Part shown: positions 32,820 through 35,614 of the stretch, one piece after another
Numbering within the stretch: position 1 is the stretch's first letter
Layout: the number at the start of each line of letters is the position of its first letter
Assembly: GCA_016871055.1 (NCBI GenBank)
Contig: VFZW01000020.1
Location: forward strand, 1 to 35,614
Reading direction: 5' to 3'
From: Acidobacteriota bacterium
GTDB taxonomy: Bacteria > Acidobacteriota > Terriglobia > Bryobacterales > Bryobacteraceae
Length of the DNA: 35,614 nt
Made by a program: the position numbers and the translations under genes
The notes under the pieces: model-generated
What the model was told of the DNA's origin: nothing
The model's input: only the letters and a program-made list of their open reading frames with translations
The model's database searches: none

Positions 32820-32823
32820 ATGA
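32803..32823 (+). CDS. Putative leader hexapeptide upstream of the DUF6282-type gene
   Basis: A six-residue frame, M-R-G-A-K-P then TGA, with a very good AAGGAGG 10 bases upstream. Its stop codon shares bases with the start of the following gene (ATGA), so it could couple translation. It may be a chance frame: nothing in the peptide suggests attenuation, and no hairpin is apparent. Confidence 0.22.
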   Translation: MRGAKP

Positions 32824-33650
32824 GCGGACTTCCCGAGTATCTGCGCGGCGCGGCGGACCTTCATGTGCACAGTGCGCCAGACGTCGTCGCGCGCCGCTAT
32901 GACGACATCGATCTCGCTCGCGAAATGGCGGCGGCTGGATTCGGAGCAATCCTGCTGAAGTCCCATTCCGCGCCCACGTCCGCGCGTGCCTATCTCACTC
33001 GCAAAGTCGTGCCGGAGATCAAAGTTTTTGGCGGGCTCGTGCTCAACGACACCATCGGCGGCTTCAACGTCAGCGCCGTTCGCGCGGCCTTAGCCGTAGG
33101 CGCAAAAGAGATATGGATGCCAACCCACTCCGCGCATAATCACAAGGTGCATCACAAGGAGCATGGCGTGCTGTCGGTGTTCGACGGTCACGGCGAGTTG
33201 CGGCACGATGTCCAATCGATCGTGCGCCTCATCGCGAACGCGGACGCGATTCTTGGCACGGGGCACATCAGCCCGGAAGAAGCCTCAGCGCTCATCCGTT
33301 TCGCACACACCGAGGGCGTATCGAAAATTCTCGTCACGCACCCGGAATGGGGAGCGACCTACTACACGCCCGCGCTCCAACGCGAGCTCACGGTCTTCGG
33401 CGCGATCTTCGAACGGTGTTTCGTGTCGACGACCCACCGTTGCGGACACGTGCCGTTCGCGACGATTGAAAATGCCATCGCCGATGTCGGTGTGAACTCG
33501 ACGATTCTCACCTCCGATCTCGGTCAACCGGATACGCCTCCACCAGCCGAAGGAATGATCGAATACGCGGAGAGGATGCGTGCCGCGGGCTTCACGCAAG
33601 ATGATGTGCGCCGGATGATGGTGACACACCCGCGGCACTTACTGGAATAG
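32820..33650 (+). CDS. DUF6282-type putative metal-dependent hydrolase
   Basis: A 276-residue protein related to amidohydrolase/PHP-like TIM barrels, most like the DUF6282 family. It shows a metal-binding start D-L-H-V-H-S-A-P-D (13-21), L-L-K-S-H (about 45-49), M-P-T-H-S-A-H-N-H (about 100-108), T-G-H (about 147), V-T-H-P-E (about 172) and T-S-D-L-G-Q (about 237), which together could hold a dinuclear or single metal site. The enzyme reaction is unknown. It is divergent from the hydroxyacid dehydrogenase/aldolase run and may serve the same pathway, for example as a lactonase or hydrolase. Its stop overlaps the convergent winged-helix gene by 12 bases. Confidence 0.85.
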   Translation: MSGLPEYLRGAADLHVHSAPDVVARRYDDIDLAREMAAAGFGAILLKSHSAPTSARAYLTRKVVPEIKVFGGLVLNDTIGGFNVSAVRAALAVGAKEIWMPTHSAHNHKVHHKEHGVLSVFDGHGELRHDVQSIVRLIANADAILGTGHISPEEASALIRFAHTEGVSKILVTHPEWGATYYTPALQRELTVFGAIFERCFVSTTHRCGHVPFATIENAIADVGVNSTILTSDLGQPDTPPPAEGMIEYAERMRAAGFTQDDVRRMMVTHPRHLLE

Positions 33651-35475
33651 CGGGCGGTATTTCTCCAGCCGCAAGTTCTTCGCCCGCTGACCGCCGATGC
33701 GTGCATTGTTTCCTTCCGCGCCGAAATAGACTCCAACCGTACCCGCATTGGTACCAGGAACTGGAAGTTCTTCCCATGCACGATCGAGCACGACGTTCGA
33801 AGTCATCGCGCCGCCTTGATCGAACACCACGAGTCTTCGATCCAGTGCGACTTGCAACACGGCGCCACTAGCGGAAACTTCAAGATGGTGGAAGGCGCTC
33901 GCGTTGAAAATCCCGGTAGGTGCGGCGAACGCAATGATCGCCGACGGATTCAGCCGGCGCACGCTGACAGCGCCGGTCGAATGAAGCCGGACCCAAAAAC
34001 CGGCGGATGTCCCGCCGATAATTCCATCGCCCGGCGCTGCGCGGCGGCTGCGGAAATACGGCCCCGCTTGGGTTTCCATGTGGTCCTCGTTTGTCGGCGC
34101 GAGCACGTCCATCGCAAAGTAGAGGTCCTGGCCGGCGTCGGCGGCGCGGATGCTTCGCAATCCGCAATCGGCGGTGCGTCGCACGAGATGAACTCCGGCA
34201 AAGCTCGTGCCAGTGTGCTGAATCTCGGAGTCGATGCGCAAATGCACCGGCCCTTCGGGGCTGGGCGAATTCGCGGCGATAAAGTAGAAGCCGTCTTGCA
34301 GGTCGTTCACACCGGAAACGCAACGATGGATTGCGGCAATGCCGGCTTGATTCAGCGCACGTTCAAAGACACGAACGTCATCGATATCGCCGCGAAAAGA
34401 TGTTCCGCGAACAACCCCGTTGCCCGCGGCGAATCGGCCAGGGCCCGGCATGAACGGTGAAACCAACGGCATGATGGCCGGATCACTTTCGACGCCATCG
34501 ACAAAGACGCTGGCGCTATTGGAAGGCGCTCCCTCGAACCGCCCCGCGATAAAGTGCCACTCGCCGTCATCGACCCGGCTCTTGCTAACCGCGACCTCTC
34601 TGCGGAGGTACACATCGGCTCGCCCGTGCCGGCTCCATGCCACATGACCGGACTTCAACAGCATGAGCGAAAAGTTGTCGGGCGAAAACTCCGAACCGCC
34701 GTTACTGTTGAAATTAACAATGACGCTCGAGTCCCCGTTGGTCGAAGTCGTTCGAATCCAAGCTGTGACCGTTCGCGGAGAATCGCCGCTTGGAAGGCGG
34801 CCGCGCGGATCGTCGCCGTCGAGAGCCGCCGACACGCCATCCAAACGAACCGCGCCGCCGAGCGCTCCGGCGACGAACTTCGCCGGACCGGAGATGCGCA
34901 GTGCCGGAAGATTCCCACCCGCATCGGCCGCCTCGCCACCGTCCAACTTAAACCAGGCAACTTCCGATAGCGACCGATCCACCGGCGTCCGCTGCCGGAG
35001 GTTTGCAAAAACGATCACGCCCGCGACCGAGGCGACGGCAGCGAGTACGTAAGGCCAAATTCGGGGACGACGCTGCGGCGGCACGTGGGGTTCGATGACT
35101 TCCGTCTCGGCAGCCGCCGATGCCACTGGCGCTATGAATTGGTACCCGCGCCTGGGCACAGTACGTACATAACGCGGCGACTTTGAGTCGTCATTCAGTG
35201 CCTTTCGAATCTCCTGGATGCATCCGACCAGCGTTGCATCGGATACTGTGGCGTCCTTCCAAACAACCAAAGAAGATCTCGTTTTTTTCAACCAGCCGGT
35301 GGCGGTTCTCAATTAGGAATTCAAGCAACTGAAACGTTCGCGGCCGGAGGTGGATCGGCTCGCCGTATAGGTGCGCCAAGCCTTGCGCCGTGTCTACCAC
35401 CAAGTCCAACGCTCGAAAAACCTTTAATTCGTCGCCTTTCGCTCGAATCTCGTCGAACTCTTGTTCTTCTCTCAT
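33639..35475 (-). pseudogene. Frameshifted winged-helix/TM/LamG one-component regulator
   Basis: The gene lies in two overlapping frames. The 5' part starts at ATG 35475 and encodes the first half of an OmpR/CadC-type winged helix (L-R-P-R-T-F-Q-L-L-E-F-L-I-E-N-R). The rest is in the next frame (V-V-W-K-D-A-T-V-S-D-A-T-L...P-R-Y-V-R-T-V-P-R-R-G-Y-Q-F), followed by one membrane helix (about W-P-Y-V-L-A-A-V-A-S-V-A-G), a LamG-like jelly roll, and a second beta-rich jelly-roll domain to the end. Removing one base near 35269-35271 restores K-N-E-I-F-L-V-V-W-K-D, the spacing expected of the family, giving about 611 residues. So it is either a recent pseudogene, a sequencing error in the T3/A7 stretch, or programmed shifting. 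Intact, it would be a membrane regulator sensing a periplasmic ligand, perhaps a sugar. Confidence 0.8.
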
Positions 35476-35544
35476 GACTTCGGGATCAAGTGCAGTGTAT
35501 ACGAGAGTGAAGGACGGACCCTAGCGGGAGTTTACTGCGAAGAG

Positions 35545-35576
35545 CGCTTACCTCGTGCGGGAGCGCGAGGTAAGCG
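35545..35576. repeat. Perfect inverted repeat forming a GNRA-capped hairpin
   Basis: CGCTTACCTCG (35545-35555) pairs perfectly with CGAGGTAAGCG (35566-35576). The stem extends inward by T-G, G-C and C-G pairs to 14 base pairs and closes on the tetraloop GGGA (35559-35562), which fits the GNRA rule. No T-tract follows on either strand, so it is not a standard intrinsic terminator, but it could end transcription or protect an mRNA 3' end. It lies 69 bases upstream of the winged-helix start, in the 139-base stretch 35476-35614, where I see no supportable gene. Confidence 0.65.
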
Positions 35577-35614
35577 GTTCATTGTGAATCACTTAGCGGG
35601 CATGCGCTCGGGCG

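What the first reader, a model, noticed from the sequence alone, without database searches (positions are those of the whole stretch)
33639..35475. Membrane one-component regulator with LamG-type sensor, split by a single-base frameshift
Seen: winged-helix halves in two frames meeting near 35269-35288, next to an A7 run and a T3 run on the coding strand; dropping one T gives K-N-E-I-F-L-V-V-W-K-D, which fits the helix spacing of OmpR/CadC-type domains. Known: CadC/ToxR-like proteins carry a cytoplasmic winged helix, one membrane helix and a periplasmic sensor. Inference: the sensor here is two jelly-roll (LamG-like) domains, which bind sugars or proteins in other settings, so an intact copy could couple a surface carbohydrate to transcription. 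The long uninterrupted 3' frame argues that the break is recent or an assembly error.
Basis: partly seen in the sequence, partly recalled or inferred. Interest (0 to 1): 0.6.

Follow-up and report, generated by a model that had tools for sequence, protein, structure and literature searches.

The report
Broken membrane gene switch with sugar-binding-like sensor
A bacterium of the phylum Acidobacteriota carries the decaying remains of a membrane-bound gene switch whose outer part looks like two sugar-binding modules; intact relatives often sit back to back with genes for large secreted-looking or surface proteins, which points to a little-noticed family of surface-sensing switches.

Summary
In detail: window 35475-33639 (minus strand) holds one gene split into a 94-aa and a 557-aa frame. 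Intact relatives align up to and beyond the joint in the same order: CadC-type winged helix, one membrane helix, LamG-type domain, second jelly roll. The predicted sensor resembles carbohydrate-binding modules (AbnA domain 4; CBM66). The break looks like real decay rather than a chance assembly error. A 95%-identical congeneric copy is intact at the window's joint but has its own one-base change in the same winged helix and a nonsense codon; all three indels in 10.8 kb of alignment lie in this gene; dN/dS is 0.23, so loss is recent. In the window's genome an insertion sequence with CTAG on both sides lies 49 bp upstream of the start, where the other genome has one CTAG; it parts the gene from a divergent PEP-CTERM gene that is still open. 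Of 26 related loci, 23 carry the whole architecture; of 22 testable ones, 18 have a divergent gene within 300 bp (13 of 20 controls), 13 of them a frame of 800 aa or more (0 of 19 controls; cut-off chosen afterwards). Ligand and target are inferred, not shown; no reads were available.

The parts
35191..35475 (-). 5' part of the broken regulator gene: 94-aa frame from ATG 35475, with the first half of the winged helix
   Evidence: collinear with the G007 copy
33639..35312 (-). 3' part of the gene: 557-aa frame with the second half of the winged helix, membrane helix and sensor
35260..35295 (-). joint: one-base length difference against the G007 copy (placed at 35269 by BLAST) beside the A7 run
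35004..35060 (-). single predicted membrane helix (557-aa frame residues 85-103)
   Evidence: hydropathy maximum 2.14; helix 146-164 in the model of an intact homologue
34320..34964 (-). first sensor domain, LamG/ConA-like jelly roll, AbnA-domain-4-like (sensor residues 1-215)
   Evidence: Pfam Laminin_G_3 2e-20; Z 21.0, 2.3 A over 190 residues to 5hp6
33651..34310 (-). second sensor domain, jelly roll like CBM66 (sensor residues 219-438), without a Pfam match here; one of the family's two invariant cysteines lies in it (267), the other at its edge (215)
   Evidence: Z 16.9, 2.9 A over 161 residues to 4azz; invariant Cys in 13 of 13 rows and 21 of 21
35521..35614 (.). CTAG target copy (35521-35524) and the end of an insertion sequence (35525-35614) cut by the contig end, 49 bp upstream of the start codon
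   Evidence: 18 other copies of this stretch in the genome; inverted terminal repeat and second CTAG on contig C455

Best explanation
This is a recently inactivated copy of a CadC/ToxR-type membrane one-component regulator. In the intact family the winged helix binds DNA, one helix crosses the membrane, and two tandem carbohydrate-binding-module-like jelly rolls outside the membrane sense a ligand, most likely a glycan or a glycan-bearing surface component (inferred). The usual target is most likely the divergently encoded neighbour, often a large secreted-looking protein or a PEP-CTERM surface protein (inferred from gene order). In the window's genome the gene is dead or nearly so: its winged helix is cut by a frameshift, and an insertion sequence has landed in the short region between it and its PEP-CTERM neighbour, whose frame is still open. 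A congeneric genome lost the same gene by different lesions.
For: Split frames and domains. G007 copy: 93.6% identity over 6 kb, intact at the window's joint, own one-base change 34 bp away plus GAA to TAA. Only 3 indels in 5994 + 4804 aligned bases, all in this gene. dN/dS 0.23 (0.14-0.36) against 0.04-0.07 for three neighbours and 0.20 for a fourth. Inverted IS ends with CTAG on both sides against one CTAG in G007; partner on C455, 242-aa frame open, PEP-CTERM. Whole architecture in 23 of 26 loci; divergent gene within 300 bp in 18 of 22; frames of 800 aa or more in 13 of 22 against 0 of 19 assessable controls. The regulator that is sister to the window's (100/99) has a partner 69% identical to G007's. 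Fold matches to AbnA D4 and CBM66.
Against: No reads were available, so the window's change is not proved at read level; both genomes are fragmented (713 and about 1360 contigs). Synonymous divergence is uneven along the region (0.12-0.34), so the dN/dS comparison is rough. Divergent pairing as such is also common among other CadC-like regulators here (13 of 20 controls; p 0.30), and the 800-aa cut-off was chosen after seeing the lengths. Partners are shared in only 2 of 6 two-row sister pairs. Jelly-roll similarity shows no ligand. No binding or expression data.
Confidence: 0.7

Rival explanations
1. The frameshift in the window is an assembly or sequencing error; the gene is intact and working in the cell.
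For: Single one-base change about 345 bp from a contig end; long open 3' frame; purifying dN/dS; no reads seen.
Against: All 3 indels in 10.8 kb of two-genome alignment fall in this gene; two one-base changes placed at random would both fall in its 1834 bases about 3% of the time (own arithmetic). The congeneric copy also has a nonsense codon. An IS lies between the gene and its neighbour.
Confidence: 0.18
2. The break is bypassed: ribosomal frameshifting or polymerase slippage at the A7 run yields some full-length protein.
For: A run of seven A's lies just upstream of the joint and the 3' frame is conserved.
Against: The G007 copy would need a shift in the opposite sense and also has an in-frame nonsense codon, so no common bypass fits both; the intact members need none.
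Confidence: 0.04
3. The 557-aa frame is a separate working protein: a membrane-anchored sensor that has given up DNA binding.
For: A stand-alone protein of the two sensor domains without winged helix exists in G102 (434 aa).
Against: The 557-aa frame keeps half a winged helix; the same part in G007 meets a nonsense codon within the sensor; its start would be an internal TTG.
Confidence: 0.05

Closest known systems
CadC / ToxR-type membrane one-component regulators
   Same: OmpR-type winged helix, one membrane helix, further domain beyond it; the family profile matches CadC 5ju7 (9.7e-24) and ToxR 7nmb (4.9e-20) best among solved sequences. An invariant cysteine pair recalls the CadC disulfide named in the title of PMC3096576 (title and start of abstract seen in a listing).
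   Different: Sensor is two tandem jelly rolls like carbohydrate-binding modules; that CadC and ToxR have other sensor folds is recalled, not tested.
AbnA domain 4 (GH43 arabinanase) and CBM66
   Same: Folds of the two sensor domains (Z 21.0 and 16.9); AbnA domain 4 also matches in sequence (5hon, E 2.2e-8).
   Different: 16-20% identical in those rows; AbnA is a secreted enzyme; binding-site residues were not compared.
Transmembrane transcription regulators surveyed in PMC10269533
   Same: Same broad class; passages seen report raised or slightly raised numbers in Acidobacteriae.
   Different: The words LamG, laminin, lectin and concanavalin do not occur in its main text; supplements were not seen.

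Membership tests
CadC/ToxR-type membrane one-component regulator (intact family) | OmpR-type winged helix in the N-terminal part | tested here: met
   Trans_reg_C in 7 of 7 rows of A1 at E up to 1, best 8e-18; CadC 5ju7 E 9.7e-24. Exception: in G266 it lies at residues 372-473 of 927
CadC/ToxR-type membrane one-component regulator (intact family) | single membrane helix between winged helix and sensor | tested here: met
   hydropathy peak (1.54-2.68) at that place in the window frame and in the 11 winged-helix homologues among the 14 listed; helix 146-164. No topology program was run
CadC/ToxR-type membrane one-component regulator (intact family) | extracytoplasmic sensor domain | tested here: inconclusive
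   two jelly rolls after the helix; the side of the membrane is inferred
CadC/ToxR-type membrane one-component regulator (intact family) | signal-dependent control of a promoter | not testable with these tools
   needs experiment
Functional member (the window's own copy) | unbroken reading frame | tested here: not met
   two frames; IS upstream; read-level check not possible
Carbohydrate-binding modules (AbnA D4 / CBM66) | shared jelly-roll fold | tested here: met
   Z 21.0 and 16.9 on the predicted model
Carbohydrate-binding modules (AbnA D4 / CBM66) | sugar-binding residues conserved | not tested
   binding residues of the solved structures were not aligned
PEP-CTERM surface proteins (the divergent partner in G000 and G007) | C-terminal PEP-CTERM sorting signal | tested here: met
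   TIGR02595 20.1 and 19.7 bits, cut-off 16; PF07589 20.8, cut-off 20.7, G000 only; marginal scores of a 24-position model
PEP-CTERM surface proteins (the divergent partner in G000 and G007) | N-terminal signal peptide | tested here: inconclusive
   only a crude hydropathy scan of the G007 protein

The most novel reading that the evidence does not exclude
A family of surface-monitoring regulators in Acidobacteriota: each senses, through domains shared with exported proteins, the glycan or surface layer that its divergently encoded secreted or PEP-CTERM partner occupies, so that the cell adjusts surface-protein output to what is already outside. In 5 of 22 loci a giant protein in the neighbourhood carries a relative of the regulator's own sensor domain (in 2 of them it is the immediate divergent neighbour), against 0 of 20 controls with shorter flanks.
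Probability: 0.3. Interest if true: 0.65.

Novelty: new variant of a known kind. Interest (0 to 1): 0.45.

Why it matters
How bacteria of this phylum control their large secreted and sorted surface proteins is, as far as I know, little understood. A regulator family with carbohydrate-binding-like sensors, encoded back to back with such proteins, gives regulator-target pairs that can be tested directly. The window's copy also shows a regulator being lost twice in one genus while its presumed target gene stays open.

Tried and rejected
Looked for a full-length paralogue in the same genome: of the four other matches of the sensor profile in G000, three are printed and are LamG-only; the fourth lies below the printed list (at most six candidates per genome were scored). 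Looked for the gene in the genus by DNA: 2 of 19 genomes, both broken. Considered that divergent pairing alone marks the family: rejected, 13 of 20 CadC-like controls have a divergent neighbour too. Considered that partners are always inherited with their regulator: rejected; of the 6 two-row sister pairs 2 share a partner, in 3 no match reached the 12% coverage at which the printed list ends, and in one G037a has no divergent neighbour. Considered that the giant partners are all metalloproteases: the zinc motif is clear in 2 of 20 neighbours scanned and altered in a third. The body of the insertion sequence was not found; its family is not assigned. Foldseek's top rows for the sensor are clostridial toxin binding domains and laminin; these are generic matches of jelly rolls and say nothing about toxicity. 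Six paper searches aimed at this architecture or its partners listed no title on it; one search found 35 papers and listed 15. Only open-licence PMC papers are held; I saw listings with starts of abstracts, and passages of two papers (PMC10269533, PMC3174227).

Limits of counts: genes were called mechanically as longest frames, so gaps can be negative and lengths too long. Of the 25 loci, G007, G102 and G261 (no complete winged helix) were dropped before counting; G154, the 26th locus, was left out because the gene runs to its contig end. G050 was counted as not paired although an unresolved frame overlaps there. The 20 controls were picked by me from the list; one (L125) is cut by its contig end, hence 0 of 19 for long neighbours. 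Controls had up to 8 kb, family loci 6-17 kb. The PEP-CTERM tail pattern was run looser on the first two neighbours of family loci than on all control frames, where it hit two frames, one plausible (L118, not the immediate neighbour) and one probably spurious (L133). Shared sensor domains, 5 of 22 against 0 of 20, give p 0.049.

Full report
What is there. Two frames on the minus strand, 35475-35191 (94 aa) and 35312-33639 (557 aa), together hold one gene. Pfam splits Trans_reg_C between them and finds Laminin_G_3 in the longer one. The 94-aa frame matches intact homologues up to its residue 68 or 67, the joint, at E 4e-15 and 2e-12; the 557-aa frame takes over from there. The window is the whole contig C20 of a 7.1-Mb, 713-contig genome. 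Of 19 relatives found in named genomes, 15 are titled Acidobacteria, Bryobacteraceae, Bryobacterales, Solibacteraceae or Terriglobia; the other four (Chloroflexi, Verrucomicrobia, Sumerlaeaceae, Nonomuraea) match over a part only. The nearest, G007, is VFZQ01000058.1, 'M_DeepCast_100m_mx_118', a name form that occurs in the Lake Tanganyika paper PMC8245535 (search listing only).

Is the break real? The G007 copy aligns over the full 1834 bases at 95%, and the region over 5994 columns at 93.6%. It is intact at the window's joint but has a one-base difference of its own 34 bp away in the winged helix and a GAA to TAA change inside the sensor. Contig C455 continues the collinearity for 4804 bases. 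In these 10,798 columns there are three indels, all in this gene: two of one base and one of three. Codon changes give dN/dS 0.23 (bootstrap 0.14-0.36; N part 0.37, C part 0.21) against 0.06, 0.07 and 0.04 for three neighbours and 0.20 for the aminotransferase; dS itself varies from 0.12 to 0.34 along the region. The gene was thus probably under selection until lately. The best reading is independent, recent loss in two species. Reads were not available, so an assembly error in the window is disfavoured, not excluded.

The insertion sequence. The last 94 bases of the window recur 18 more times in the genome; 14 of these 18 lie within 90 bases of a contig end, and for the other four the contig length is not shown. 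The first 98 bases of contig C455 end in the inverted form of the same terminal repeat, and both junctions carry CTAG where G007 has a single CTAG between matching flanks. So an insertion sequence with a four-base target duplication lies 49 bp upstream of the regulator's start and 40 bp upstream of the next gene's start, inside an intergenic region of about 85 bp in G007. The seven other copies whose flanks I printed (of 18) also follow CTAG.

The partner. Beyond the insertion lies a divergent 242-aa frame for a PEP-CTERM protein, open in G000 and G007 (TIGR02595 above cut-off in both, PF07589 just above it in G000), followed by a DUF3500 gene and a sulfatase gene.

The family. The sensor profile found 24 matches at E below 1e-120 in 17 of 257 genomes of the order, the window and G007 included (at most six candidates per genome were scored, so a lower bound); one more member, G081, is from the same class outside the order. 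In 26 loci examined, 23 carry winged helix, LamG domain and second domain in one frame; the others are the broken G007 copy, G102 (no winged helix, 434 aa) and G261 (no winged helix found). G266 is a longer form with the winged helix in the middle. Two cysteines are invariant in 21 of 21 rows of A4.

Neighbours. Of 22 loci with a complete gene and known upstream sequence, 18 have a divergent gene within 300 bp, against 13 of 20 CadC-like controls from the window's genus, family, order and class; that difference is not significant (p 0.30). What differs is size: in 13 of 22 the divergent frame has 800 aa or more, against 0 of 19 assessable controls (p 3e-5; the cut-off was chosen after seeing the lengths). 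Of these 13 giants, 12 were scanned with NCBIfam and 8 match choice-of-anchor D or Soli_cterm above cut-off; signal peptides were judged only by a crude hydropathy scan. Four more neighbours have PEP-CTERM-like tails (G037, G155, G118, G119); NCBIfam puts three above cut-off and G155's below. In five loci a giant protein in the neighbourhood bears a relative of the regulator's LamG or second domain: strongly in two G211 loci and G161, weakly in G050 and G037; in one of the G211 loci and in G161 it is the immediate divergent neighbour. None of the 20 controls shows this, with shorter flanks (p 0.049). The window's regulator is sister to one in G155 (100/99), whose PEP-CTERM neighbour is 69% identical to that of G007. 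G118 and G119, of one genus, also share a partner. The four other two-row pairs do not, as far as the printed list shows.

Structure. The window's sensor (441 residues, 13-row alignment) was predicted at mean pLDDT 80.6. Its first domain is closest to domain 4 of the arabinanase AbnA (Z 21.0, 2.3 A over 190 residues), its second to CBM66 (Z 16.9, 2.9 A over 161 residues); further rows for the first domain are clostridial toxin binding domains and sialidases, a generic jelly-roll likeness. An intact homologue (611 aa) was predicted at 81.8 with winged helix, one helix at 146-164 and strand-rich domains after it; its first sensor domain again matches AbnA best (Z 22.5), while its second domain was hardly tested there. 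In sequence the family profile matches CadC 5ju7 first, then ToxR. NCBIfam gives CadC (41.1 bits, cut-off 400) and HilA/EilA (28.9, cut-off 589) for the window frame, both far below cut-off.

How it most likely works. Shown: domain order, predicted folds, the lesions, the gene arrangement. Inferred: that the sensor lies outside the membrane, that it binds a glycan or surface component, that the winged helix controls the divergent gene, and that loss of the regulator left the partner gene under other control or none.

Against what is known. The class (membrane one-component regulators) is known; PMC10269533 surveys it and reports raised numbers in Acidobacteriae (passages read). Six paper searches listed no title on this sensor. 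I therefore call the family a new variant of a known kind, and the window's copy a decayed member of it.

Noticed in passing
window 35521-35614; G000 contig C455 start (L109:1-102): Insertion sequence with terminal repeat CGGGAGTTTACTGCGAAG and CTAG target duplication; 19 copies of one end found in this genome, its own included; the body was not found and the family was not assigned.
   Followed up: partly
L109:139-3462: PEP-CTERM protein, DUF3500 protein and sulfatase in a row, divergent from the broken regulator and present in the same order in G007.
   Followed up: partly
G000:C78:17781-20174: Two LamG-type matches in this genome, each with an in-frame stop; perhaps further decaying or misread genes.
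   Followed up: no
L096:10315-11619; L053:4944-6248: Stand-alone protein made of the two sensor domains without winged helix, with a hydrophobic N-terminus.
   Followed up: no
L037 (1249-aa frame), L038 (1647-aa frame): Large proteins with a metalloprotease-like HExxH motif (by eye) end in a relative of the second sensor domain.
   Followed up: no
window 32820-33650 (+): DUF6282 gene convergent with the broken regulator, the two frames sharing 12 bases at their ends; strongly conserved (dN/dS 0.06).
   Followed up: no
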